Positions 1 to 17,407 of a stretch of DNA of 49,323 bases are shown here, in pieces. The notes below the pieces were generated by a model, which ran no database searches, was not told the DNA's origin, and was given only the letters and a program-made list of their open reading frames with translations. The number at the start of each line of letters is the position of its first letter. The first letter of the stretch is position 1. The DNA lies in NCBI GenBank assembly GCA_001767525.1, contig MELF01000001.1, positions 1 through 49,323 of the forward strand, written 5' to 3'. Source of the stretch: Acidobacteria bacterium RIFCSPLOWO2_12_FULL_68_19. Its GTDB lineage: Bacteria > Acidobacteriota > Vicinamibacteria > Vicinamibacterales > UBA2999. Made by a program: the position numbers and the translations under genes.

Positions 1-132
1 GCCAAGAAGTCCCTCAGCAAGGCCTCTTGTACCACGCGGAGGCGTTTCTGTTTCTACCGAAATCGGCCCCTTCGTGAATTTTCCGGGCTAACCCTCCGCC
101 ACCGGGTACTGAACACCAAATTCTTTGGCTCC

Positions 133-190
133 GTACGTAGTGTCCGGCTTCAGCCGGACCCCGGTACGTAGTGTCCGGCTTTAGCCGGAC
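133..190. repeat. REP-like palindrome, two tandem copies
   Basis: Two 27-bp copies (133-159 and 164-190), spaced 31 bp apart, each contain the palindrome GTCCGGC-TTNA-GCCGGAC preceded by GTACGTAGT. The same unit recurs at 1731-1757 and 2864-2890. The second copy supplies the last two codons and the TAA stop of the ABC-F gene that ends at 181. Read on the minus strand the unit encodes the peptide GPAEAGHYV. It looks like a REP/BIME-type element; no RAYT transposase is seen in the window. Confidence 0.85.
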
Positions 191-2040
191 CGCGACTCCA
201 GCTCGTGCCATCGCTCGTACGCCTTCGCCAGCTCCCGTCCCACCTCGGTGAGCCGCGCGAGCGTCGCGGCAATTGCCTCGCCCCCCTCCTTGTAGAACCC
301 GGGCGCGGCGATGCGCGCGTTCAGCTCCTGCTCCTCGGCCTCGAGCGCCTCGATGCGCGCCGGCGCCGCTTCGAGCTCGCGCTGCTCCTTGTAGGACAGC
401 TTCCTGGACGCCACCGCCGCGGAAGCTCCGAGCGCGTCCGGCTTGCCGCGCGAGTCGCCAGGCATCGCGCCAGATGCAGGCCGGGTCCTCCTGGACCCGG
501 CATCAGGCTTGCGCCGCTGCCGCACCCAGTCCTCATACCCGCCGACGTACTCCTGCACCTCGCCCCCGCCCTCGAACGCAAACGTCGTCGTCACCACGTT
601 GTCCAGCAGCGCGCGGTCGTGGCTGACGAGAATGAGCGTCCCCGGCCACTCGGCGAGCTGCTCCTCGAGGAGCTCGAGCGTCTCGATGTCCAGGTCGTTG
701 GTCGGCTCGTCCAGGATGAGCACGTTGGCGGGACGCGTGAACAGGCGCGCGAGCATCAGCCGGTTGCGCTCGCCGCCCGAGAGCGCCTTGACGGGCGAGC
801 CGGCGCGCGCCTGCGGAAACAGGAAGTCGGCCAGATACGCGTTGACGTGGCGCGTGCGGCCGTTCACGGTCACCGTGTCGTTGCCGTCGCCGATCGTGGC
901 GAAGACCGTCCGCTCGGGATCGAGCTGCTCGCGCTGCTGATCGTAGTAGGCAATCTCGACGTTCGCGCCGCGCCGCACCTCGCCGGAATCGGGCTGCAGC
1001 TCGCCGAGCAGCAGCTTCAGGAGCGTCGTCTTGCCGGCGCCGTTCGGCCCGAGCAGCCCGATCCGATCGCCGCGGATGATGCGCGCGGAGAATTCGCGGA
1101 TGACCGGCGTCCCGTCGTACGCCTTGCTGACCTGGTCGAGCTCGAACACCATCTTGCCGGACTGCTGCGCCCGTGCGCCGGCGATTGCGCTGTCGAGGCG
1201 CACCTGCCCGATCTCTTCACGCCGTGCGAGCCGTTCGGCGCGCATCGCCTCCAGCGCGCGGACGCGCCCCTCGTTTCGCGTGCGCCGCGCCTTGATCCCC
1301 TGGCGTATCCACGCTTCTTCTTCCGCGAGCTTGTCGTCGAATCGCGCCTGCTCGGCAGCCTCGGCCGACATCGCCTCCTCTTTCCGGCGCAGGTAGATCG
1401 CGTAGTCGCCCGGCCACGACGTGAGGCGGCCGCGGTCCAGCTCGATGATGCGCGTGGCGAGGTGCTGGAGGAACGCGCGGTCGTGCGTGACGAAGATGAC
1501 GGCGCCCTGGTAGCCGGCGAGGAACTCTTCGAGCCAGGTGATCGCCTCGATGTCGAGGTGATTGGTCGGCTCGTCGAGGAGCAGCAGGCCGGGCTGTCCG
1601 ACCAGCGCGCGGGCCAGGAGCACCCTGCGGCGCCAGCCGCCGGAGAGCGTGTCCACGATCGCATCGCCGTCGAGATTCAACCGCGACAGCACCATGTCCA
1701 CGGCGTGCTGCCGGCGCCACTCCTCGTCGGGTACGTAGTGTCCGGCTTCAGCGGGACCCGCCACGATGTGCCCTTCGGCGACGACGTCGGCGACGGAGCT
1801 GGCGGTGGAGAGCGGGATGTCCTGCTCCAGGCGGGCGGTGTGGAGGCCGGGCTCGCGCCAGACGGTGCCCGAGTCGGGCAGCAGGGCGCCGCTGAGGATC
1901 TTCAGGAGCGTGGACTTGCCGGTGCCGTTCCGGCCGATGACGGCGATGCGCTCGCGCGGCTCCACGCGGAGCGCGACCTCGTCCAGGAGCGGCAGATGGC
2001 CGAACGCGATCGAGACTGCGTCCAGCGTGACCAGGGGCAT
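181..2040 (-). CDS. ABC-F family ATPase (Uup/Ettx-like)
   Basis: A soluble tandem ABC ATPase of 619 residues without membrane segments, as in ABC-F proteins that act on the ribosome (Uup, EttA, antibiotic-protection types). Domain 1 has Walker A GRNGTGKST (residues 36-44), signature LSGGW and Walker B with DEPTNHLD. A charged linker helix follows around residues 240-300. Domain 2 has GPNGAGKTT, LSGGERNR and DEPTNDLD. The C-terminal ~100 residues are a Lys/Glu/Ala-rich coiled coil as in Uup. Two palindromic repeats sit inside the reading frame: residues 95-103 (GPAEAGHYV) come from a REP copy, and the linker before the coiled coil holds a 9-bp hairpin (about residues 513-520). The stop codon also comes from a REP copy. 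The frame stays open throughout, so the gene looks functional. The exact ABC-F subtype is uncertain. Confidence 0.93.
   Translation of the reverse strand: MPLVTLDAVSIAFGHLPLLDEVALRVEPRERIAVIGRNGTGKSTLLKILSGALLPDSGTVWREPGLHTARLEQDIPLSTASSVADVVAEGHIVAGPAEAGHYVPDEEWRRQHAVDMVLSRLNLDGDAIVDTLSGGWRRRVLLARALVGQPGLLLLDEPTNHLDIEAITWLEEFLAGYQGAVIFVTHDRAFLQHLATRIIELDRGRLTSWPGDYAIYLRRKEEAMSAEAAEQARFDDKLAEEEAWIRQGIKARRTRNEGRVRALEAMRAERLARREEIGQVRLDSAIAGARAQQSGKMVFELDQVSKAYDGTPVIREFSARIIRGDRIGLLGPNGAGKTTLLKLLLGELQPDSGEVRRGANVEIAYYDQQREQLDPERTVFATIGDGNDTVTVNGRTRHVNAYLADFLFPQARAGSPVKALSGGERNRLMLARLFTRPANVLILDEPTNDLDIETLELLEEQLAEWPGTLILVSHDRALLDNVVTTTFAFEGGGEVQEYVGGYEDWVRQRRKPDAGSRRTRPASGAMPGDSRGKPDALGASAAVASRKLSYKEQRELEAAPARIEALEAEEQELNARIAAPGFYKEGGEAIAATLARLTEVGRELAKAYERWHELESRSG
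480..501. repeat. Perfect hairpin inside ABC-F gene
   Basis: GCCGGGTCC-TCCT-GGACCCGGC forms a perfect 9-bp stem with a 4-base loop, and flanking GATGC/CATC extends it imperfectly (474-504). It lies in the Pro/Arg/Ser-rich linker before the C-terminal coiled coil of the ABC-F protein, where a translated insertion is harmless. Its core differs from the 133-190 palindrome, so it is probably a second REP family. Confidence 0.7.
1731..1757. repeat. REP-like palindrome inserted in-frame in ABC-F
   Basis: A 27-bp copy of the unit seen at 133-190 and 2864-2890, with one mismatch in the right arm (GCGGGAC for GCCGGAC). It is in frame in the first ABC domain between Walker A and the signature motif, adding GPAEAGHYV at residues 95-103 without disrupting the frame. 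Confidence 0.85.
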
Positions 2041-2106
2041 CTCTCCACCCTACTACGGCTTCCGGGCGCTTTGCGCGCTGCGTCTTCTGGCGTAACGTGG
2101 AAGCCT

Positions 2107-2433
2107 ATGGCGGAAATGAGGCAGATCGTGAAGCTGCTCGAGGAGCAGCGGCGTGCGCTGATGGATCAGCTCGCTGCCGTGGACAAGGCAATTGCGGCGC
2201 TCGACAGCGCCGACGATCCCGCCGAACCCGCGGCACGGCAGGTCAAGGCACGCCGCACGCAGACCGATTCGCATAAACATGCGATTGCGGTGGGAAAGCG
2301 CAAGGCCCGCAACGCGCGTGACGCCGCGAAGGGCCTGATGCGCGAGGTCCACGACGACGACTTCGTGCCCGCGGTCGGCCGGCGGGGCGACGGCGACGCC
2401 GACGCGCCAAGGCTCGTCAAGAAGAAACCCTAA
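2107..2433 (+). CDS. Small charged coiled-coil protein, unknown function
   Basis: A 108-residue protein starting at ATG 2107. Residues 1-35 are an amphipathic helix of coiled-coil type (MAEMRQIVKLLEEQRRALMD). The rest is rich in Lys, Arg and Ala with acidic patches near the C-terminus and ends in KKKP, so nucleic-acid or ribosome binding is possible. No known domain is recognised. It is transcribed divergently from the ABC-F gene (66 bp between the starts), and its TAA stop overlaps the TAG stop of the convergent arfB-like gene by two bases. It is real rather than a shadow because the codons show the expected strong GC bias at third positions and the start region is compact. Confidence 0.65.
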   Translation: MAEMRQIVKLLEEQRRALMDQLAAVDKAIAALDSADDPAEPAARQVKARRTQTDSHKHAIAVGKRKARNARDAAKGLMREVHDDDFVPAVGRRGDGDADAPRLVKKKP

Positions 2434-2852
2434 TCGTCGTCGCGCGAGCTGCGACCCCGCAGCGCCTTCACCTTCGCCCGCTTCTTCTTGCCTGTCAGCC
2501 GCTTCTCCTTCGCGGCCGCCTTCGGCTTCGTCGCCCGCCGCACGCGCGGCCTGACCAGCGCCTGCCGTATCAGCGCCACCAGCCGCTCGCGCGCGGCCTC
2601 GCGGTTCTGCAGCTGCGTCCGGTGCGCGCGGCTGTCGATGAGCAGCACGTCGCCCTGCGTGATCCGGCTTCCCGCCAGCGCGATCAGCCGCTGCTTCACG
2701 TCGTGCGGCAGCGGCGACGCGCCGACGTCGAAGCGGAGCTCCACGGCGGTGGCCACCTTGTTGACGTTCTGGCCGCCCGGCCCTGAGGCGCGCACGAACC
2801 GCTCCTCGACAAGATCATCATCGAGCGCGATGGCGTCACTGATCTGGATCAT
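2430..2852 (-). CDS. arfB: Peptidyl-tRNA hydrolase ArfB (ribosome rescue)
   Basis: A 140-residue release-factor-like protein. Residues 12-37 hold the catalytic GGQ motif in the context RASGPGGQNVNKV, the loop that hydrolyses peptidyl-tRNA in stalled ribosomes. The C-terminal ~40 residues form the basic tail (KPKAAAKEKRLTGKKK) that in ArfB/YaeJ inserts into the empty mRNA channel of a stalled ribosome. Length and architecture match ArfB rather than full release factors, which have extra domains. Start chosen at ATG 2850-2852; the frame stays open further upstream only through the REP element at 2864-2890. With the ABC-F and YciH genes it makes a small group of translation-related genes. Confidence 0.93.
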   Translation of the reverse strand: MIQISDAIALDDDLVEERFVRASGPGGQNVNKVATAVELRFDVGASPLPHDVKQRLIALAGSRITQGDVLLIDSRAHRTQLQNREAARERLVALIRQALVRPRVRRATKPKAAAKEKRLTGKKKRAKVKALRGRSSRDDD

Positions 2853-2863
2853 CAGTACAAGTT

Positions 2864-2890
2864 GTACGTAGTGTCCGGCTTTAGCCGGAC
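2864..2890. repeat. REP-like palindrome upstream of arfB
   Basis: A 27-bp copy identical to the unit at 164-190, with palindrome GTCCGGC-TTTA-GCCGGAC. It lies 11 bp upstream of the arfB start, between arfB and the divergent YciH gene, where it could affect either promoter. Confidence 0.85.
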
Positions 2891-2957
2891 CTGACAGACT
2901 CAATTCTAGGTTCGAATCCGGCTTGCGGCGGATGCGGCGCTCATCAATGATGGGGAC

Positions 2958-3314
2958 GTGCACGCCCGGGACAACTCCAGGACTGTCTACTCGACGACGG
3001 CAGGCCGAACCTGCCCTAAGTGCGGGTGGCCTGCGCGCGACTGCAAGTGCAGCCGCCCGGCGGAGGAGGCCGTTCCAGCGCGCCCGGTCGCGAAGCTGCG
3101 GATCGAGAAGAAGGCGCGAGGGGGCAAGACGGTCACGGTGGTTGACGGATTGCCACGGAACAGCGCCTTTCTGAGGAACTTGAGCCAGGAGCTGAAACGC
3201 GCGTGTGGCGCCGGCGGATCCGTCTTCGACACCGGCGTCGAAGTGCAGGGCGACATGCGCGAACGCGTGCGCGCCGTCCTGCTCGCCAGGGGATTCATCG
3301 TCAAAGGCGGCTGA
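2958..3314 (+). CDS. yciH: YciH/SUI1-family translation factor (eIF1-like)
   Basis: A 118-residue protein starting at GTG 2958. The N-terminus carries a small zinc-binding cluster CPKCGWPARDCKC (about residues 19-31) typical of bacterial and archaeal SUI1-type proteins. Residues ~45-118 form the SUI1 fold, with KLRIEKKARGGKTVTVVDGL and the basic loop, and the protein ends LLARGFIVKGG. YciH in E. coli resembles eIF1 and influences initiation fidelity. It is transcribed divergently from arfB. A short N-terminal extension before VYSTTAGR makes the exact start uncertain. Confidence 0.9.
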   Translation: MHARDNSRTVYSTTAGRTCPKCGWPARDCKCSRPAEEAVPARPVAKLRIEKKARGGKTVTVVDGLPRNSAFLRNLSQELKRACGAGGSVFDTGVEVQGDMRERVRAVLLARGFIVKGG

Positions 3315-3397
3315 GGGCTCGGCCATCCGGCGAAACCTCGGCGAATGACCTCGGTTGTCACCGCCGCTCGGTATCGTGGCCCTTTCGAGGAGGCCAC

Positions 3398-3736
3398 ATG
3401 TCGACCGCCGAACGCCGCCGCACCCGTGGGCCCCGGCATCTCTGCCAGCGCTGCCGCGACCGTAAAGCCCGGTTCAATTACCACGGCGTCGTCCGCGCCG
3501 ATTACGATCAGCCGCCTTCGCTCGAGCAGCTTCGGCGCCCAGGCACCGTTTGTTTCGAGTGCTACCGCCGCGAACTGAACAAGGCGCGGGCGCGGCGCCT
3601 CGCGGAGCGTGCGCGGATGCCGTCGCCGTTCACGGCCTCTGACGGAGGCCCCACACGAGTACTGGACACCCGTCAGGTCGGCCATCGCCGGCGGATGCTC
3701 GAGCACTTGGAGCACGAGGCTTCCGCGGCGTCCTGA
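3398..3736 (+). CDS. Small basic protein with two CxxC knuckles
   Basis: A 112-residue protein with a strong Shine-Dalgarno (GAGGAGG, ~3386-3393) five bases before ATG 3398. Two cysteine pairs, CQRC (residues ~17-20) and CFEC (~52-55), could make one zinc ribbon, and the protein is very Arg-rich. No family is recognised. It follows the YciH gene by 83 bp on the same strand. Nucleic-acid binding is a reasonable guess only. Confidence 0.7.
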   Translation: MSTAERRRTRGPRHLCQRCRDRKARFNYHGVVRADYDQPPSLEQLRRPGTVCFECYRRELNKARARRLAERARMPSPFTASDGGPTRVLDTRQVGHRRRMLEHLEHEASAAS

Positions 3737-3845
3737 CCGGGCTCATTTGAGGCCTGCACGCACTCACGTCGACACCCTTCGGCCTGCTGTGCGCTAACAC
3801 ATCAGGAGTTCCACCAGCGCCAGGGCGGCTGATAAGCTCTGCCGC

Positions 3846-4997
3846 ATGCCCGTGGAACTTGGCGTCTGGCGCATCGACGGTCAACTGTCTCGCGTCCAGG
3901 CCGGCCCGCTCGATCTCGAATCCAGGCTCGAGGACATCCTCGACAGTGAAATCGCGATTGCCAACCCGGATTGGATGATCATTGGCCGCCAAGTGATCAC
4001 GCCGCATGGCGGTAGGGTCGACCTCCTCGCGATTGATCGAGACGGCAACCTCGTGATTGTGGAATTGAAGCGCAACCACATGCCGCGGGACATCGTCACG
4101 CAGGTTCTCGACTACGGTTCCTGGGTCGGCACGTTGCGGGCAGAAGACATCGCCCCCATATTCAATGCGTACCGGAAGACGCGGTTTCCGAACGAGCCCA
4201 CACTGTCAATTGACGCTGCCTTCTGCCGACGATTCGGCCTCAAGTCGATGCCCGAGGAGCTCAACGAACGCCACGAGCTGGTCATCGTCGGCTCAGAGTT
4301 CGACGCCGACACAGAACGGATCGTGACCTACCTGTCGGATACCCACGGCGTCAACATCAACGCGGTGTTCTTTCGGGTCTTCAAGGATGGAGATCGTGAG
4401 TACCTGACCAGGGCCTGGCTCAGAGAGCCCGAGTCATCCGGGTCGTCGCCTGGCGCGTCAACGTCACTGAGGTCCGCGTCGTCGCCGAAAGGTGACTGGA
4501 ACGGCGAATACTACGTCTCGTTCGGTGACTTGGACGACTCCGGCAGGAGCTGGGAGGATGCGGTCAAGTACGGTTTCATCAGCGGCGGGGGCGGCGAATT
4601 CTACGTGAGAACGCTCTCACTCTTGTCACCTGGCGACCGGGTGTGGGTCAACGTGCCTGGAGAAGGGTATGTCGGAGTTGGCGAGGTTACGAAGCCGGTC
4701 GTGCGCATCGACCAGTTCCTCGTTCCTGGACCCGGCGGGCGAGATGTTCCGATCACGGAAGTCCCGCTCAAAGGGCCACGAATCGTCGAAAGCTTGAAAA
4801 CCGCCGAGGTGCCCGAACACCTCGTCGGCGTCCGCTGGCTCGCATCCGTTCCGAGGAACAAGGCAATCAAGGAGAAGGGGCTCTTCGGAAATCAAAACAC
4901 TGTCGCGCGGCCACGTGATCCAAAGTGGGCCTATACCATCGAACGCCTCCGAGAGCGGTTCGGTATCGTCGACGGCCGGCTTGGGCAGCAAGACTGA
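3846..4997 (+). CDS. DUF91/NucS-like PD-(D/E)XK nuclease
   Basis: A 383-residue protein. Residues ~20-160 match the DUF91 endonuclease family: GGRVDLLAIDRDGNLVIVEL followed by KRN gives the catalytic D...ExK set, and the following helix VTQVLDYGSWVG is typical of the fold. After a Ser/Pro linker (~200-220), residues ~225-345 form a second beta-rich domain (YYVSFGDLD, GDRVWVNVPGEGYVGVGEV) that resembles PUA/EVE-like modified-base-binding modules, though I am not sure of that. It lies just upstream of type I restriction remnants and a DUF4268 nuclease, so a role in phage or plasmid restriction is likely. Start at ATG 3846 fits DUF91 N-termini. Confidence 0.8.
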   Translation: MPVELGVWRIDGQLSRVQAGPLDLESRLEDILDSEIAIANPDWMIIGRQVITPHGGRVDLLAIDRDGNLVIVELKRNHMPRDIVTQVLDYGSWVGTLRAEDIAPIFNAYRKTRFPNEPTLSIDAAFCRRFGLKSMPEELNERHELVIVGSEFDADTERIVTYLSDTHGVNINAVFFRVFKDGDREYLTRAWLREPESSGSSPGASTSLRSASSPKGDWNGEYYVSFGDLDDSGRSWEDAVKYGFISGGGGEFYVRTLSLLSPGDRVWVNVPGEGYVGVGEVTKPVVRIDQFLVPGPGGRDVPITEVPLKGPRIVESLKTAEVPEHLVGVRWLASVPRNKAIKEKGLFGNQNTVARPRDPKWAYTIERLRERFGIVDGRLGQQD

Positions 4998-5009
4998 CCA
5001 CCTTGCCCG

Positions 5010-5310
5010 ATGGACAAGAAGCAGCTCAGCGAGCGTGACATCTGCACGAAGTTCATCACGCCGGCCCTGCGCCAGGCGGGCTGGGACGAGCTGACGCAGC
5101 TTCGCGAGGAGGTCAGCTTCACGAAAGGCCGGGTCATCGTTCGCGGCCAGATGGTCAAACGGGGCAAGGCCAAGCGCGCCGACTACATCCTGTACTACAA
5201 GCCGAACATTCCTCTCGCGGTCGTCGAGGCCAAGGACAACAACTGCAGCGTGGGCGACGGCATGCAGCAGGCGATGGAGTACGCCGAGACCCTGCAGCTC
5301 CCCTTCGTGT
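5010..5310 (+). pseudogene. hsdR: hsdR 5' fragment (type I restriction subunit R)
   Basis: The first ~100 residues are a clear type I restriction endonuclease R-subunit N-terminus: KKQLSERDICTKFITPAL, then the nuclease core KRADYILYYKPNIPLAVVEA followed by KDN (D...ExK), then DGMQQAMEYAETLQLPFVC. An intact HsdR continues for another ~900 residues with a helicase motor. Here homology stops at about 5310 and the sequence passes, in another frame, into the middle of hsdS. The stop in the original frame is at 5580-5582. The helicase part, hsdM and the start of hsdS are all missing, so the restriction activity is lost. Confidence 0.85.
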
Positions 5311-5325
5311 GTTCGCCCGTACCTC

Positions 5326-6558
5326 TTGAACGTCGCCATCATCGAAGACGATATCTCTCCGGCTCCTATAGCGAGTACCGCTTTTGCGGTGCTCAATGGC
5401 TTCGGACTCGTCGTACCGCGATACCAGTGGATCGTGCTGCGGAGCCCTTTCATGGTTGCGTGCGTCGAGACCAAGATGCGCGGGCAGGCCTATCCGGCCA
5501 TCAACGATTCCGACTTCGCGTTGTTGCTCTTTCCCCTCCCCCCTCTTGCCGAGCAGCACCGCATCGTGGCCAAGGTCGATGAGTTGATGGCGCTGTGCGA
5601 TCGGTTGGCGGCAGATCGGGCCGAGCGAGAGGCAACCCGCGACCGACTGGCCGCGGCAAGCCTCGCCCGTCTCAACGCCCCCGACCCCGTGACATTTCGG
5701 GACGACGCCCGCTTCGCGCTCGACGCGTTTCCGGCCATCACCACGCGCCCCGACCAGATCGCGCAGCTTCGCCAGAACATCCTCAACCTCGCCATGCGCG
5801 GCAAACTGGTGCCGCAGGCCGTGGGTGACGAACCTGCCACGTTAGAGCTTGCCCGCTTAGCCTCCAGTCAGGCCAAGACAAGGGTTGGCCGCGACTGGGT
5901 AGGCGATATGTCTGTTCCAATAGAGAGAGCCTTCCTATTACCTCGGGGGTGGGCCTGGACGCGAGTGGGGAACGCTGTCGAGCGCATAACAGTCGGGTTT
6001 GTCGGCCCAATGAAGGACCAATACGTCGAATCCGGCGTTCCGTTCCTTCGCAGTCAGAATGTTCGGGCGAATTGTTTCCGCAAAGACGGGCTGGTGTACA
6101 TCGCGCCGAAGTTCCATGAACGCATCATCAAGTCGGCACTACAGCCAGGCGATGTCGTCGTCGTTCGCTCGGGCAACGTTGGAACGGCTTGTGTGATCCC
6201 CTCGTCGTTGACTGAAGCGAACTGTTCGGATCTTGTCGTCGTCAAGAGACCGAGGGCAGTGCTTTCAGCCTACCTTTGTTATTACCTAAATTCTCTAGCG
6301 GCGTCTCACATAGAGGTTGGTTCCGTTGGCGTTGCCCTGACCCATTTCAATACGAAGTCGGTCGCGACCCTGCCTCTTCCTCTCCCACCCCTCGCCGAGC
6401 AACGCCGCATCGTGGCCGAGGTCAATGAGCTGATGGTGCTGTGCGACCGGCTGGAGGCAAGCCTTGCCACTGGCGAAGACACTCGTCGCCGCCTGCTTGA
6501 CGCGCTCCTGTTCGAAGCGCTCGCGCCGGCCTCACGTACTCTGGAGTCAGTTGTATGA
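5326..6558 (+). CDS. hsdS: Type I restriction specificity subunit HsdS, 5'-truncated
   Basis: A 410-residue product from TTG 5326; homology already begins near 5312 in the same frame (RPYLLN). Residues 1-65 are the end of the first target-recognition domain, followed by the conserved LPPLAEQHRIVAKVDELMALCD helix (coiled-coil spacer 1). Residues ~160-345 are a complete second target-recognition domain (FLLPRGWAWTRVGNAVERI ... LRSQNVR), closed by the second conserved helix LPPLAEQRRIVAEVNELM. Most of the first domain is gone, and no hsdM is present in the window. It may be expressed but cannot act alone. The stop overlaps the next gene's start (ATGA, 6555-6558). Confidence 0.85.
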   Translation: MNVAIIEDDISPAPIASTAFAVLNGFGLVVPRYQWIVLRSPFMVACVETKMRGQAYPAINDSDFALLLFPLPPLAEQHRIVAKVDELMALCDRLAADRAEREATRDRLAAASLARLNAPDPVTFRDDARFALDAFPAITTRPDQIAQLRQNILNLAMRGKLVPQAVGDEPATLELARLASSQAKTRVGRDWVGDMSVPIERAFLLPRGWAWTRVGNAVERITVGFVGPMKDQYVESGVPFLRSQNVRANCFRKDGLVYIAPKFHERIIKSALQPGDVVVVRSGNVGTACVIPSSLTEANCSDLVVVKRPRAVLSAYLCYYLNSLAASHIEVGSVGVALTHFNTKSVATLPLPLPPLAEQRRIVAEVNELMVLCDRLEASLATGEDTRRRLLDALLFEALAPASRTLESVV

Positions 6559-7541
6559 CACAGAATCTGGGTCGACTAGAACGCGTCGAGCTGCGCGACA
6601 TCTGGACCACCGAGGCGACTGACTTCACGCCGTGGCTGGCCCGTCCGGAGAACCTGTCGGTGCTGGGCGAGACGCTTGGCATTGACTTGGAACTGGAGGC
6701 ACAGGAGCGCGCCGTCGGACCGTTCCGGGCTGACATTTTGTGCAAAGAAATCGGGGCCGATCGCTGGGTGTTGATTGAGAACCAGCTCGAGCGAACGGAC
6801 CATAGCCATCTCGGACAACTCCTGACCTATGCGTCGGGGCTTGAAGCCGTCACGATTGTCTGGATCGCCGCGCGTTTTACCGAGGAGCACCGGTCGACGC
6901 TCGACTGGCTGAACCGGATCACGGATGACAGCTTCCGGTTCTTCGGCTTGGAAGTGGAGCTGTGGCGGATAGGAGCGTCGCCGGCAGCCCCGAAGTTCAA
7001 CATCGTTTCAAAGCCCAACGACTGGTCGCATTCCGTCGCGCAGGCCGCCCGCGCGATTGACGACGCGGAACTGTCTGAGACGCGAATCGCGCAGAGGGCG
7101 TACTGGGCGGCGCTGCATCCAGTGCTCAATGCGGCGGGGGGACCAGTGTCCGGCAATCGGAAGCCACAGCCACAGGCGTGGATGGTCTACCCGATCGGCC
7201 GCACCGGCTTCTGTTTGGCCGCTGTCATGATCCGGCCGAAAAAGCAGGTGCGTGCCGAACTTTACATTTCGGGCGACCAGGCCAAGGATCTTCTGGCGTC
7301 ACTCAAGGGCGAGCGTCAGGCGATTGAGCATGAGCTTGGCTATCCGCTCGAATGGGAGGAGTTACCGTCGCGGCGTGACTGCCGGATCGCTTCTTATCTC
7401 AATGCCGCAGACCCCGAGGACGAATCCGACTGGCCGCGTCAGCACGCGTGGCTGACGAAACGGCTGAACGACCTGCATCGGGTTCTCTCCCAGAGGGTCA
7501 AGGCGCTGGCTGGGGCTCCGCATTCACCCGATAGCGAGTGA
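6555..7541 (+). CDS. DUF4268 PD-(D/E)XK-like nuclease, RM-associated
   Basis: A 328-residue protein. Residues ~30-110 form a restriction-endonuclease-like fold with FRADILCKE and VLIENQLERTDHSHLGQLLT, the usual place of the D...ExK site; here the last position reads ENQ, as in several members of this family. Residues ~195-300 are the DUF4268 domain (AWMVYPIGRTGFCLAAVM, RAELYISGDQAKDLLASLK). It starts inside the hsdS stop codon (ATGA overlap), so it is translationally coupled to the specificity subunit. Genes of this type are common riders of type I RM operons. Its substrate is unknown. Confidence 0.85.
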   Translation: MTQNLGRLERVELRDIWTTEATDFTPWLARPENLSVLGETLGIDLELEAQERAVGPFRADILCKEIGADRWVLIENQLERTDHSHLGQLLTYASGLEAVTIVWIAARFTEEHRSTLDWLNRITDDSFRFFGLEVELWRIGASPAAPKFNIVSKPNDWSHSVAQAARAIDDAELSETRIAQRAYWAALHPVLNAAGGPVSGNRKPQPQAWMVYPIGRTGFCLAAVMIRPKKQVRAELYISGDQAKDLLASLKGERQAIEHELGYPLEWEELPSRRDCRIASYLNAADPEDESDWPRQHAWLTKRLNDLHRVLSQRVKALAGAPHSPDSE

Positions 7542-7590
7542 CCACCCTCTGCCCCGGGCCCACCTGAAGAGAACAGAGGACTTCGGATGT

Positions 7591-8013
7591 TCAGGTTTTC
7601 GGGTACCAGAGTTCAACGTGCCCGGGGTCCGCTGCACTATCTGGTGTGCTGGTCGTCGATCCCCGGTACACCTTCCCAATAACAGGGGGTGGATTGGCGT
7701 CCAAGAATCGGAGAATGGGATCCAGTGTCGCTACGAACGAACGCGCCAGTTCCGCATAGGGCGCTTTGCCGACGATCACGAGCAGTGTTGCGTTGTGGGC
7801 GATGATCGCAGCGAGCTCATTGGGTTTGTACCGAATGCGGCTGTCATGCGTGAGTGCGACCCATCCGCGGGCCGCCACCGCGGCAAGCCACACGTCGTCA
7901 GGACAGTTGTGAGGAAAGTGGTCGGCGTGTCGCTCTACGGTAAGCCCTGCGTCGCGAAGAATCTGAGGGAACTGCAGGCCAAGATCGCGGTCGGTGAAGA
8001 AAACAACACTCAA
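7591..8013 (-). CDS. PIN-like toxin (VapC45-type)
   Basis: A 140-residue protein starting with TTG at 8013. The conserved acidic residues of a PIN-like nuclease are visible in FFTDRDLG, CPDDVWL and LTHDSRIRYKPNE. The family is a distant PIN-like RNase known as VapC45 in mycobacteria, always next to a DUF433-type antitoxin, as here. The start overlaps the antitoxin stop (TTGA, 8010-8013), giving translational coupling, antitoxin first. Confidence 0.8.
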   Translation of the reverse strand: MSVVFFTDRDLGLQFPQILRDAGLTVERHADHFPHNCPDDVWLAAVAARGWVALTHDSRIRYKPNELAAIIAHNATLLVIVGKAPYAELARSFVATLDPILRFLDANPPPVIGKVYRGSTTSTPDSAADPGHVELWYPKT

Positions 8014-8711
8014 GCCGCTCGCTCGTACAGGACGGCGTGCTCTACCTCCTCCTGACTCAGCTCATAATCGGCGGCTACCTCCGGTAGCGGTTCGCCCGCA
8101 TCGATGCGGGCGACAATGGCGGCAGTCGACACTCCGCGACTCGCCACAACGGGTCGGCCGAAAGCGATCCTGGGATCGATTGCGATCGGCATCGTCGCGT
8201 CTGCTGGTTGACCCGATACGAACGGATACAGGCGGATCGGAAGCTTGTGCTCCCAGACGACGCGCCTCAGGTGGGCGTCCAGCACGTGGCGCATGGCGAG
8301 TTGCCCCGACGCCGACAGGTTGATCAGCTCTCCATAGCGGTCCAGGAAGATATCGCCGGCCTTGGTGCGAAGCTCCTGGCTCAGGAGCAATCGATTGATC
8401 TGCAGCTTACGCTCAGCAAAGCGGGCGGCGTCTCGCACCGCCTTGACGGACACGCCATGTTCCGTGCGCAGCGCCCGAAGGACGTGCGCTTCGATCAAAT
8501 TGGAAAACGAGAGGAGCGGAGGACGACTCGATGCGGGCCGGATGAGGGGAGGGAAGTGACCTTCACCGCTCGCGGTCGGGTACGGCCGGCCGAACGTCCA
8601 CGCGCGAAGCGTGGCCGGAGGCAACTTCAGATATCGGGCGGCTTCAGCCAACCCGTAGGCGGGCTGGTCTCGATGGCTATTCTTCGCGGCGAACCTCCCT
8701 TCGGTCGACAT
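8010..8711 (-). CDS. DUF433 antitoxin (VapB45-type) with N-terminal HTH
   Basis: A 233-residue antitoxin. Residues ~18-45 are a winged HTH of MerR/excisionase type (AYGLAEAARYLKLPPATLRAW). The C-terminal ~65 residues form the DUF433 domain (DPRIAFGRPVVASRGVSTAA, ADYELSQEEVEHAVLYERAA) that contacts the toxin. Start chosen at ATG 8709-8711. Open frame continues upstream but the longer N-terminus shows no conserved sequence. It probably represses its own operon through the HTH. Confidence 0.82.
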   Translation of the reverse strand: MSTEGRFAAKNSHRDQPAYGLAEAARYLKLPPATLRAWTFGRPYPTASGEGHFPPLIRPASSRPPLLSFSNLIEAHVLRALRTEHGVSVKAVRDAARFAERKLQINRLLLSQELRTKAGDIFLDRYGELINLSASGQLAMRHVLDAHLRRVVWEHKLPIRLYPFVSGQPADATMPIAIDPRIAFGRPVVASRGVSTAAIVARIDAGEPLPEVAADYELSQEEVEHAVLYERAA

Positions 8712-8788
8712 CGATGATTGTACCCATTCCTGACCGATCAGGCGATTGAGTACGGGCTGCCGTTCAGACCGCCGGCCGGCTGGATCAG

Positions 8789-8974
8789 CTACTCGGAGCC
8801 GTCCGCGCGAGCGAGGCTGACGAAGCGCTCGCCGCCTTCCCGCACGACCTGCACCCGCCACGGGTTGCAGCACACTTCGCAGTCCTGGACGAAGCTCCCC
8901 GTGACGTCTGGCTCGATGTAAATCTCGACCTCCTCGCCGCAATACGGGCAGGTCACCGTCCACTGGTCGTCCAT
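8789..8974 (-). CDS. CPXCG-motif cysteine-rich protein
   Basis: A 61-residue protein. CPYCG (residues 9-13) and CEVC (32-35) make a single zinc ribbon, with IYIEPDVTGSFVQDC between them, the signature of the small CPXCG family. Function is unknown for the family. Start at ATG 8972-8974. It lies between the antitoxin start and the 80-bp repeat at 9007. Confidence 0.85.
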   Translation of the reverse strand: MDDQWTVTCPYCGEEVEIYIEPDVTGSFVQDCEVCCNPWRVQVVREGGERFVSLARADGSE

Positions 8975-9006
8975 GGGAGCATTATCGGTTCGGCTGACCG
9001 CCTTCG

Positions 9007-9089
9007 CTGTGCCGGCGGGAGGGCGGGGCCGCATCGGCGGCATTCCGTCAACCAAGGGCGCGAAAACCGTTAATCGTTCCTATCGTCTC
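9007..9089. repeat. 80-bp junction repeat, copy A
   Basis: One of three copies (also 10433-10507 and 17326-17407) of an ~80-bp element. Read on the minus strand it begins GAGACGAT and ends CCGGCACAG. This copy begins at the stop codon of fic. Copies A and B are in the same orientation and bracket the Fic gene and its operator. Confidence 0.8.
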
Positions 9090-10206
9090 AATTCTCTGTG
9101 AGCGAATAGCTCGTGCTGCGTCCGCCGCCTTCGTCCTTCTTCAGAATCCCGTGGCCAATCAGATCCTGGATGTCGCGTAGCGCCGTGTCATGAGAACACT
9201 TCGCCAGCTTGGCCCACTTCGTCGTCGTCAGCGTCCCGTCGAATCCATCGAGAAGTCTGTTCAGGATTCCGCGCTGCCGCTCATTGATCGCCACCTGCGC
9301 ATGGCCTTCCCAGAACCGCGCCTTGCGAAGCACCGAGCCAAGCGTGGTTTCGGTTCCGTCGAAGGCGCGCCCGAGGCATCCCAGGAACCATTCCATCCAG
9401 GGGGTGACGTCAAGCGTTCCCTTCTGTGTCCTCTCAAGAATCTCGTAGTACTCGTTCCGTTCCTGACGGATCTGCGCCGACATGCTGTAGAAGCGCTGCG
9501 GGCTGCCTTCCGAGCGCGCGAGCGCCCGGTCGGCGATCGCGCGCGCGATCCGGCCATTGCCGTCATCGAACGGGTGGATAGTCACAAACCACAGGTGAGC
9601 GAGCGCGGCCCTGAGAACCGTATCCGTCCTGTCACTCGCGTCGTTCGCCCAAGTGAGGAACGCGGCGATCTCCCGCTCGATCAGGGAAGCAACCGGCGCC
9701 TCGTAATGCACGTTCTCTTTTCCAACCGGCCCGGACACCACCTGCATCGGCCCGTCGGAATCGTTTCGCCACGCGCCGACGATGATCTTGCGCATGCCGC
9801 TGCGCCCTGTCGGAAACAGCGTCGCATGCCATGCGAACAGCCGCTCTTCGCTCAGAGGCTTGCTGAAATTCTGCGTCGCGTCGAGCATCATCTCGACAAC
9901 GCCTTCAACATCCCGTTCGGCAGCAACAGTTCCGCCCGTCTCTAGCCCCAGGCGCCGGGCAATTGAGGACCGTACCTGGTCGGGAGGCAGCGTTTCGCCC
10001 TCGATTTCGCTCGACTTGAGAACGTCAAGGGTGAGCGTCTCGAGTTCGGCCTCTTTCTGGAGCGAAAAGCCGAGGCCCTCCATCCGTCCCAGAAGGCGGC
10101 CCTGCCTGTGGCGAATGTCGGCGAGAGGTGCAGCGAGCGCCTCCCGATCCCATCGAAATTTTGGCCAATCGGAAAGCTGATGAATATAGCGGGTCAATTC
10201 ACGCAC
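9088..10206 (-). CDS. Fic family AMP-transferase with DUF4172 N-terminus
   Basis: A 372-residue Fic protein that transfers AMP (or a related nucleotide) to target proteins. Residues ~5-85 are a DUF4172-type N-terminal helical domain. SSEIEG (about residues 66-71) fits the inhibitory motif [S/T]xxxE[G/N], whose Glu blocks ATP binding. The core motif HPFDDGNGRIAR (about residues 212-223) is complete. The last ~70 residues form a winged HTH (LTTTKWAKLAKCSHDTALRD). Full length and intact. The HTH and the repeated operator just upstream (10209-10294) suggest autoregulation. It lies between direct copies A and B of the 80-bp repeat. Confidence 0.92.
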   Translation of the reverse strand: MRELTRYIHQLSDWPKFRWDREALAAPLADIRHRQGRLLGRMEGLGFSLQKEAELETLTLDVLKSSEIEGETLPPDQVRSSIARRLGLETGGTVAAERDVEGVVEMMLDATQNFSKPLSEERLFAWHATLFPTGRSGMRKIIVGAWRNDSDGPMQVVSGPVGKENVHYEAPVASLIEREIAAFLTWANDASDRTDTVLRAALAHLWFVTIHPFDDGNGRIARAIADRALARSEGSPQRFYSMSAQIRQERNEYYEILERTQKGTLDVTPWMEWFLGCLGRAFDGTETTLGSVLRKARFWEGHAQVAINERQRGILNRLLDGFDGTLTTTKWAKLAKCSHDTALRDIQDLIGHGILKKDEGGGRSTSYSLTEN

Positions 10207-10208
10207 TC

Positions 10209-10294
10209 TATGCGTAGATTATGGGGTCTATTCGACGCGGAGTCAAGACACACGACGCAGTATATGCGTAGATTATGGGCCTCATTCTACGCAT
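10209..10294. promoter_or_regulatory. Three-site operator upstream of fic
   Basis: Two 17-bp direct repeats TATGCGTAGATTATGGG at 10209-10225 and 10263-10279, 54 bp apart, plus an inverted half-site TCTACGCAT at 10286-10294 that forms a perfect 9-bp inverted repeat with ATGCGTAGA at 10264-10272 (13-bp spacer). They cover the first 90 bp upstream of the fic start. The protein's own C-terminal winged HTH is the obvious candidate binder. Confidence 0.75.
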
Positions 10295-10432
10295 GGCCCA
10301 GATGAAGGAGACCGCAGAGATTTCAGGCTTTTCCCGTCCGCCGGGCAGCGCCGAATTCGGCAAGTCCTTCGAGCACTACCTGCTGATGGAACTGAAGGCC
10401 TACCAGGCGTACCGACGGCCGGACCTCGGCCT
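10293..10432 (+). pseudogene. DUF4143-type ATPase C-terminal fragment
   Basis: About 47 codons reading ISGFSRPPGSAEFGKSFEHY and then LLMELKAYQAYRRPDL. The spacing FGKSFEHYLLMELKAY matches the start of the DUF4143 C-terminal domain of AAA+ ATPases, which would continue with a YWR...EVDF motif. It is cut off exactly where repeat copy B begins (10433). The remaining parts of the ATPase are absent. Probably a deletion relic. Confidence 0.5.
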
Positions 10433-10507
10433 CTGTGCCGGCCGGGAGGGCGGGGCCGCATCGGCGGCATTCCGTCAACCAAGGGCGCGAAAACCGTTAA
10501 TCGTCTC
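10433..10507. repeat. 80-bp junction repeat, copy B
   Basis: Copy B of the element at 9007-9089, with one extra C and a 9-bp deletion (TTCCTATCG) relative to copy A. It overlaps the 3' end of lpd: the last eight residues INGFRALG and the TGA stop of lpd are read from the repeat. Its other edge truncates the DUF4143 fragment. Confidence 0.8.
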
Positions 10508-11880
10508 CATCACTGACTCGGAGAGCGTGGGATGCGGATGGATCGTCAGCTTCAGATCCTCCGCGGTGGCGCCCATCTCGACCGCGAGCACGCCCTCCGC
10601 AATCAGCTCCCCGGCGCCGGAGCCGGCAATGCCGACGCCCAGGACGCGGCCGGAGTCCGGCTCGAGCACCAGTTTGGTGAGCCCGTCTGGCCGGTCCACG
10701 GTCACGGCGCGACTCAGGGCGCCCCAGGGAAACTTCGCAACCTCGATCGGAATCCCGCGCGCCACGGCCTGCGCCTCCGTGAGCCCGCACCACGCAATCT
10801 CTGGATCGGTGAACACGACGGCGGGGATGGCGCGAGGCTCGAACTCCGCCTTGTGGCCGGCAATCGCGTCAATCGCCACTCGCGCTTCATGTGACGCCTT
10901 GTGCGCCAGCATCGGCTCGCCGGCCACGTCTCCGATCGCGACCACGGACGGCTCGGCGGTCCGCCGCTGCCCATCGGTCTCGATGAAGCCCTGATCGGTG
11001 ACTCTGACGCGGGTCGTGCCGAGCCCGGGAATCTTCGAGTTGGGCCGGCGGCCGACGGCGACCAGCACCCGGTCGAAGACCTGTTCCGGAGGACTTGAAG
11101 GTCCGCCGCCCTCGGCGGCCTCGAAGGTGACGCGGACACCACTCCGCTCCTCCGCCAGCCTGACAACTCTGGTGCTCAGCATGATGGCGGCGCACCGCTT
11201 CTCGAGCCGCTTCTGCAGCACCTGGACGAGGTTGCAGTCGGCGCCCGGCAGCAACCCGGCGGTCATCTCGACCACCGAGACCGCGCTGCCGAGCATGGCG
11301 TAGACGGTGCCAAGCTCCAGCCCGACATAACCGCCGCCGATGACCAGCAGCGAGCCGGGAATGTCCGGCAGGTCGAGGGCCGTCGTCGAGTCGAGCATCC
11401 GGGCGCTCTCGAGCGACAGCGAGGGAATGCGCGTGGGATGCGACCCGGTGGCCAGGACACAGTGCTCGAACTGCAGCTCGGTCTCGCCGCTGCTGCCGGT
11501 GATCGCCATCGAATGCGGACCGGTCAGCGTGGCCCGTCCCTGCAGATATTTCACCTTGCGCAGACGGGCGATCTGGCCGACCCCGCCCGTCAGTTTGTCG
11601 ATCACGCCCTGCTTGAACGCCCGGAGCCGGGCCACATCGACGGTCGGCTCGGCGAATGTCACACCCCAGGCGCCGGCGTGGCGGGCGTCGTCGATCACCC
11701 GGGCGACGTGCAGCAGCGCCTTGGAGGGGATGCAGCCGCGGTAGAGGCAGACGCGCCGCCCGGATTCTTCTCCTCGTCAACGAGCGCCACCTGCATGCCG
11801 AGATCGGCGGCGTAAAAGGCCGCCGCGTAGCCGCCAGGCCCGGCGCCGAGCACGGCCACCTGTGTGGATTCGCGCGCCAT
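10475..11880 (-). CDS. lpd: Dihydrolipoyl dehydrogenase (E3), frameshifted
   Basis: FAD-dependent E3 of the pyruvate dehydrogenase complex, which reoxidises dihydrolipoamide with NAD+. The N-terminal FAD motif VAVLGAGPGGYAAAF starts at ATG 11880. The frame then breaks near 11752-11760, where two extra bases (GC) in a GGCGGCGCG run shift it; the correct continuation VCLYRGCIPSKALLHVARVI with the redox pair CxxxxC follows in the next frame. The remainder (GTG at 11698 onward) is full length, with NAD motif GGGYVGLELG and the His-Glu site HPHPTLSE. The last residues INGFRALG come from repeat B. The break could be a real mutation or a base-calling error in a GC run. The ATG overlaps the aceF stop (ATGA). 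Confidence 0.85.
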
Positions 11881-17325: not shown

Positions 17326-17407
17326 CTGTGCCGGCGGGAGGGCGGGGCCGCATCGGCGGCCTTCCGTCAACCAAGGGCGCGAAAACCCCGTTCGTTCCTA
17401 TCGTCTC
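17326..17407. repeat. 80-bp junction repeat, copy C
   Basis: Third copy of the 9007/10433 element, with a few substitutions (for example CCCCGTTCG in place of CCGTTAATCG). It separates the truncated TctC remnant from the 3' end of the IS256-type transposase remnant, so both neighbours end at its edges. Confidence 0.8.

What the first reader, a model, noticed from the sequence alone, without database searches (positions are those of the whole stretch)
1731..1757. REP palindrome translated inside an ABC-F ATPase and supplying its stop codon
The 27-bp unit at 133-159, 164-190, 1731-1757 and 2864-2890 is a genomic repeat, yet one copy sits in frame in the ATPase (GPAEAGHYV, residues 95-103), and another provides the final Ser-Gly codons and the TAA of the same gene. 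This single gene shows three modes of repeat use: insertion, 3' capping and 5' proximity (arfB). It suggests a mobile palindrome tolerated, or selected, within coding sequence.
Basis: partly seen in the sequence, partly recalled or inferred. Interest (0 to 1): 0.66.

Follow-up and report, generated by a model that had tools for sequence, protein, structure and literature searches.

The report
Mobile DNA palindrome tolerated inside genes
A short mobile palindrome of a known kind (a GTAG-type REP sequence) sits in frame inside a bacterial translation-factor gene without breaking it and also forms that gene's end, which is ordinary behaviour for such repeats, seen here in a new repeat family of soil and groundwater Acidobacteria.

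Summary
Four copies of GTACGTAGTGTCCGGCTTYAGCCGGAC lie at 133, 164, 1731 (one mismatch) and 2864. They are GTAG-tagged REPs. The 1731 copy is read in frame as GPAEAGHYV in an Uup-like ABC-F protein. It is absent from 80 of 80 named homologues and lies in a low-confidence loop of a predicted structure. The 164 copy supplies Ser-Gly-TAA, is identical in G109, and a third genus also ends this gene on a REP stop.

The tagged core is rare in its own genome (3 exact copies) but reaches 338 in relatives. In several of these its RAYT transposase sits between inverted copies. The own genome's single RAYT belongs to another clade, so the repeat looks orphaned.

In sampled DNA of two repeat-rich relatives, 8 of 81 clusters are read through inside genes, in all four stop-free frames. 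Of 18 gene ends that reach into a unit, 15 stop in its two stop frames. REPs inside ORFs and REP-supplied stops are already published (PMC3733652). Tolerance plus purging is supported; selection for the peptide is not. New member of a known kind.

The parts
1731..1757 (+). GTAG-REP unit (family A), one stem mismatch; read on the minus strand as GPAEAGHYV (residues 95-103) inside the ABC-F gene
164..190 (+). GTAG-REP unit (family A); on the minus strand supplies Ser-Gly and the TAA stop of the ABC-F gene; identical unit at the same place in G109
133..159 (+). GTAG-REP unit (family A), second unit of the tandem beyond the ABC-F stop; G109 has only a diverged remnant there
2864..2890 (+). GTAG-REP unit (family A), 11 bp upstream of the arfB start; a diverged counterpart exists in G109
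480..501 (.). Second palindrome family (family B, GCCGGGTCC-NNNN-GGACCCGGC), in frame in the C-terminal linker of the ABC-F protein (about residues 514-521)
181..2040 (-). ABC-F ATPase gene, Uup-like (best NCBIfam model is Uup, 785 bits, below its cut-off of 900)
2430..2852 (-). arfB, alternative ribosome-rescue hydrolase (NCBIfam ArfB model, 173.6 bits over a cut-off of 100)

Best explanation
The unit is a GTAG-tagged REP, a non-autonomous palindrome spread (inferred) by a RAYT/TnpA-REP transposase. Shown: in several related genomes the RAYT gene sits between inverted copies of this unit, and genomes with that RAYT type hold more copies. Shown: the window's genome has no close match to that RAYT and few, mostly imperfect copies. 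Inferred: the copies here are relics of past activity. The unit is 27 bp (nine codons) and free of stops in four of its six frames, so a copy can sit in a gene in frame as a nine-residue peptide. It survives where the protein has a flexible loop, here the short loop between Q-loop and signature motif of an Uup-like ABC-F. In the other two frames the unit carries a stop (GTAG, or Ser-Gly-stop), and gene ends that reach into a unit mostly stop there. Purging of harmful insertions plus tolerance of harmless ones accounts for the in-gene copy, the cap and the copy upstream of arfB.
For: GTAG tag, 7-bp stem and 4-base loop. 20 own-genome copies at up to 3 mismatches, control 0. 38 of 162 genomes of the order have the exact core, up to 338 copies, control 0 in the genomes listed. 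RAYT between inverted units in 7 of the 14 best RAYT loci examined (three of them also). The five unit-flanked RAYTs form one side of a branch (94/97) apart from the own one. Thirteen genomes with a full-length RAYT hit of at least 54% identity have median 36 copies, the other 149 median 0 (p 5e-12). In-gene copy absent from 80 of 80 named homologues. pLDDT below 50 exactly at 94-103. 8 of 81 clusters read through inside genes in all four open frames, six of seven scanned with a Pfam domain spanning the unit.
Against: Transposition is not shown, and the junction of the 1731 insertion is ambiguous: net gain 21 bp, not 27. Of the 14 RAYT loci, three had units on one side only, three none, and one a distant weak match. 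Two of the 13 genomes with this RAYT type have 0 or 1 copy (G019, G017), and 26 of the other 149 genomes have copies, five of them 20 or more. The identity threshold for the 13 was set after seeing the list. Four of the own genome's 20 copies lie within 2.8 kb, which chance hardly gives (about 1e-5) and the explanation does not account for.
Confidence: 0.82

Rival explanations
1. Co-option: the in-gene copy was kept because the peptide or its RNA hairpin usefully changes the ABC-F loop or its translation.
For: The conserved THH loop of close homologues was replaced. The one change from the consensus is synonymous and weakens the stem, so the peptide is intact. The 3' unit is identical in G109 although the region is 87% identical.
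Against: Low-confidence loop; in-gene copies in relatives use all four open frames, not one peptide; the in-gene copy is absent in all relatives examined; a single synonymous change proves little.
Confidence: 0.1
2. Import: the first 3 kb, with its four copies, came by recombination from a REP-rich relative such as the G109 lineage.
For: All 3 exact own-genome cores are here; gene order as in G109 with 87% identity.
Against: Other regions are 70-84% identical to G109, so the excess is small. The in-gene copy and the 133 copy are not in G109. G+C at 1-3500 is close to that of 10.5-12 kb.
Confidence: 0.12
3. Assembly artefact: the repeats at the contig end come from misassembly or a foreign contig.
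For: The window begins at base 1 of contig C1, and bases 1-91 recur at the start of C28 at 99%.
Against: Gene order and two of the four copies recur in the independent genome G109, and the reading frame is intact.
Confidence: 0.03

Closest known systems
GTAG-tagged REPs and REPtrons (PMC3733652; abstract, outline, sections 5, 15, 16 and found passages read)
   Same: GTAG tag, short stem, small loop, RAYT flanked by inverted units, copies inside ORFs, and TAG of the tag used as stop of neighbouring genes.
   Different: The families there were not compared letter by letter here (Figure 1 is not held). New here: a family in this Acidobacteria order, stop supply also from the opposite orientation (Ser-Gly-stop), and frame counts. 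That paper mentions Acidobacteria only for TIR-flanked transposases.
TIR-flanked tyrosine transposases (TIRYT; PMC3733652 section 16)
   Same: The own genome's only Y1_Tnp protein is flanked by GGGGTCAGACCC, which fits the published GGGGWSAS motif.
   Different: Not associated with the unit of this finding.
Rickettsia palindromic elements (RPE; from PMC3733652 section 15, the rest recalled)
   Same: Palindromes translated in frame inside proteins.
   Different: That paper files RPE-4 and RPE-6 with CGTC-type repeats, which have no transposase link; this unit is GTAG-type with a RAYT link.
REPINs (abstract of PMC3116915 seen in a search listing; the rest recalled)
   Same: In G111 two inverted units form one 116-bp element.
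   Different: It has extra outer arms with CTAG-like ends; the copies in the window are single or in direct tandem.

Membership tests
GTAG-tagged REP | Unpaired GTAG (or close variant) at one end | tested here: met
   GTAG at bases 5-8 of all four units
GTAG-tagged REP | Short stem (6-13 bp) with small loop | tested here: met
   7-bp stem, 4-base loop; the 1731 copy has one broken pair
GTAG-tagged REP | High-copy interspersed repeat | tested here: inconclusive
   Met in some relatives (up to 338 copies), weak in the own genome: 3 exact cores, 20 units at up to 3 mismatches
GTAG-tagged REP | Cognate RAYT flanked by inverted units | tested here: met
   In 7 of 14 RAYT loci of relatives examined; not in the own genome, whose RAYT has other flanks
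GTAG-tagged REP | Processed by its RAYT | not testable with these tools
   Needs an in vitro assay such as that of PMC8266576 (abstract and sections 17 and 29 read)
RPE (CGTC-type) | CGTC end motif | tested here: not met
   The tag is GTAG
TIRYT (own transposase) | Y1_Tnp protein flanked by non-REP terminal inverted repeats, often with GGGGWSAS | tested here: met
   GGGGTCAGACCC on both sides; motif from PMC3733652 section 16

The most novel reading that the evidence does not exclude
In this order the REP unit behaves as a frame-neutral nine-codon cassette, open in four frames and carrying a stop in the other two, and its retention differs by place: open frames inside genes, stop frames at gene ends. 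In G111 a 116-bp derivative with CTAG-like ends has become a routine gene terminator, its edge TAG being the stop of 13 of the 21 coding 3' ends that face it in the sampled DNA.
Probability: 0.25. Interest if true: 0.55.

Novelty: new member of a known kind. Interest (0 to 1): 0.36.

Why it matters
It extends the known GTAG-REP and RAYT pairing to a well-sampled Acidobacteria order, gives a clear case of a REP present in one conserved gene and absent from its relatives, and offers counts of how often and in which frames such elements are tolerated. That makes the question of neutral passenger versus useful terminator testable. For annotation, recurring peptides such as GPAEAGHYV or VRLKPDTT can mark REPs and not protein homology.

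Tried and rejected
Import of the segment from the G109 lineage: weakly supported and not needed. The own RAYT as mobiliser: rejected, other clade and other flanks. A single clean 27-bp insertion with target duplication: not demonstrable, the three alignments place the gap differently. Enrichment of stop frames at gene ends: 15 stopped against 2 read-through gives p 4e-6, but if the 8 interior read-through clusters are pooled (15 of 25) p is 0.006, and 6 of the 15 have same-strand coding beyond the unit, so some may be truncated genes. A first RAYT tree failed on row names and missed 12 of the 20 loci from relatives; redone. No tRNA gene was found in the window. Literature: full-text searches of open-licence papers; among the papers listed I saw no report of REPs in Vicinamibacterales, but only the listings were seen for most of them, and subscription papers are not covered.

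Full report
What is there. The window is the first 49,323 bases of contig C1 of a 4.21-Mb, 52-contig genome. Many record titles of homologous contigs name Acidobacteria; one family member's contig (G107:C112) matches by length a record titled Vicinamibacterales, so the order is probably Vicinamibacterales (inference). Four copies of GTACGTAGTGTCCGGCTTYAGCCGGAC lie at 133-159, 164-190, 1731-1757 and 2864-2890, all in one orientation. At up to 3 mismatches the palindrome has 6 matches in the window against 0.78 expected; 0 of 100 shuffles reach that.

The unit. It has a 7-bp stem, a 4-base loop and an unpaired GTAG tag. That is the form of the GTAG-REP superfamily (PMC3733652; abstract and sections 5, 15, 16 read). 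In the own genome the tagged 23-base core occurs exactly 3 times, all in this window, and the 27-base unit 20 times at up to 3 mismatches, with 0 in the reversed-pattern control. Of 162 genomes of the order, own included, 38 have at least one exact core, with up to 338 copies. A second GTAG-tagged family, GTAGGSCGGGTCCNNNNGGACCCGSC, is more frequent here: 41 palindrome sites, control 0; flanks were printed for 18 sites only, several of which show the tag.

The transposase. The own genome has one Y1_Tnp match. It is flanked by GGGGTCAGACCC repeats, with no unit nearby. The 14 RAYT loci examined fall as follows: units on both sides, inverted, in G028, G014, G111, G094, G047, G020 and G010; on one side only in G027, G109 and G032 (G032 also has a 4-mismatch unit on the other side); a distant weak match in G096; none in G099, G017 and G019. 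On a tree of 21 RAYTs the five labelled as unit-flanked form one side of a branch (94/97), and the nine labelled as TIR-flanked, the own one included, form another (100/100). The labels are mine; two rows flanked by other-stem REPs do not group and five were left unlabelled. Thirteen of 162 genomes have a full-length hit to this RAYT at 54% identity or more, a threshold set after seeing the list (G010's split hit is not counted). Their copy numbers have median 36, 10 of 13 having 20 or more. The other 149 have median 0, with 26 not zero and 5 at 20 or more (p about 5e-12). The best own hit to this RAYT is 29% identical. The copies in the window are therefore most likely relics.

The ABC-F gene. 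It encodes an Uup-like ABC-F ATPase (the NCBIfam Uup cut-off is not reached). Between VVAEGH and DEEW the closest homologues have THHTAA where the window protein has IVAGPAEAGHYVP: 6 against 13 residues, a net 21 bp. None of 28 same-family homologues aligned over the site and none of 80 named homologues has the peptide; the two sets overlap. This place lies between Q-loop and signature motif, where other homologues carry a longer insertion (that this is the Arm subdomain is recalled). AlphaFold on a 25-row alignment gives pLDDT below 50 at 94-103, the inserted peptide, and at 511-544, the linker that holds the family-B palindrome, besides three stretches within 250-294 (mean pLDDT 78.5, pTM 0.41). 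The one difference from the unit consensus is synonymous (Pro) and weakens the stem, from -8 to -4.3 kcal/mol as DNA.

The gene end. In the window genome and in G109 (another genus, 87% DNA identity over this block) the gene ends TCC GGC TAA inside the unit, and the 27 bases of that unit are identical. In G094 the gene also ends on the unit's Ser-Gly stop (TCC GGC TGA), after seven further residues. In G093 no unit is found at the gene end, although GGTCCGG is present there. The arfB-upstream copy has a slightly diverged counterpart in G109. So the cap and the arfB copy are older than the split from G109, while the in-gene copy is known from this genome alone.

How general. In 511 kb of G014 and 400 kb of G111, 81 clusters (137 units) had usable flanks on both sides. 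With a codon-usage score of my own, 8 of 81 clusters are inside a gene and read through: GPAEAGHY frame 2, VRLKPDTT frame 2, YVVSGFSRT frame 3, VRSVRLEPD frame 1; 7 of the 8 are in G014. Seven of these eight proteins were scanned with Pfam. In six a domain spans the unit: beta-lactamase, Maf, protein kinase, ketopantoate hydroxymethyltransferase, NrfD, penicillin amidase. In the seventh the FtsX domain lies elsewhere. The eighth holds masked bases and was not scanned. Random insertion into a genome assumed to be 85% coding would put far more inside genes. Gene 3' ends face clusters more often than 5' ends (62 against 30). Of the 62, 44 stop before the cluster, 15 stop within the unit (7 at the GTAG; 8 in the opposite orientation, 7 of them after Ser-Gly and one after Ser-Ala), one stops at a TAG overlapping the edge, and 2 beyond. 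Against a one-third chance of a stop frame, 15 of 17 gives p 4e-6; pooled with the 8 interior clusters, 15 of 25 gives p 0.006. Six of the 15 have same-strand coding beyond the unit, so truncation cannot be excluded for them.

A side finding in G111. Twelve complete elements were extracted, eight of them 116 bp, in which two inverted units lie between arms ending in CTAG or close variants. Of 30 element ends, 21 face the coding 3' end of a gene; in 13 the edge TAG is that gene's stop, in 6 the gene stops earlier, in 2 later. Whether the element brings the stop or targets it was not resolved.

Reading. The unit is nine codons long and free of stops in four frames, so it can sit silently in a loop; in its other two frames it ends the gene. 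Purging plus tolerance explains what is seen. This agrees with the published statements that GTAG REPs often provide TAG stops to flanking ORFs and lie inside ORFs of several species (PMC3733652, section 15). [quoted passage not shown] by analogy the 1731 copy may no longer be mobile. What is added here is a further family with its RAYT type, an ordered series of insertions around one gene, stop supply from both orientations, and frame counts. Transposition itself and the insertion junction are not shown. The tight clustering of four copies in 2.8 kb of an otherwise repeat-poor genome remains unexplained.

Noticed in passing
L281-L300 (G111), e.g. L289:11596-11711 and L300:14368-14483: 116-bp inverted-repeat element built around two inverted units with CTAG-like ends; its edge TAG is the stop codon of 13 of 21 facing coding 3' ends.
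   Followed up: partly
480-501: Family-B palindrome in frame in the ABC-F linker; also a palindrome in G109 and G093, with one paired change in G093 (GGGTCT/AGACCC) that keeps the stem.
   Followed up: partly
L121, ABC-F linker: The ABC-F linker of another genome holds VRLEPDTT, resembling the unit's VRLKPDTT frame; no unit was matched there at up to 3 mismatches.
   Followed up: no
L255 and L258: RAYTs flanked by GTAG/GTGG-tagged palindromes with other stems (GCAGACC, CGCACGACT) but a similar TTTA-type loop, suggesting that stems change along with the RAYT.
   Followed up: no
3750-10500: Stretch of lower G+C (about 0.58-0.65 against about 0.69 on either side), with ORFs that look like type I restriction genes (recalled, no family search).
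   Followed up: no
9016-9084, 10443-10511, 17335-17403: A 69-base direct repeat in three copies, 96% and 78% identical to the first.
   Followed up: no
1-91: Bases 1-91 recur at C28:2-92 at 99% identity, so the contig starts at a repeat.
   Followed up: no
L050:1040-1155, 7250-7325, 11625-11725: Other hairpin-forming repeats (CGGTAGGTGGTAG type and GTTGGGAGTTG type) with many matches in G110 and G109.
   Followed up: no
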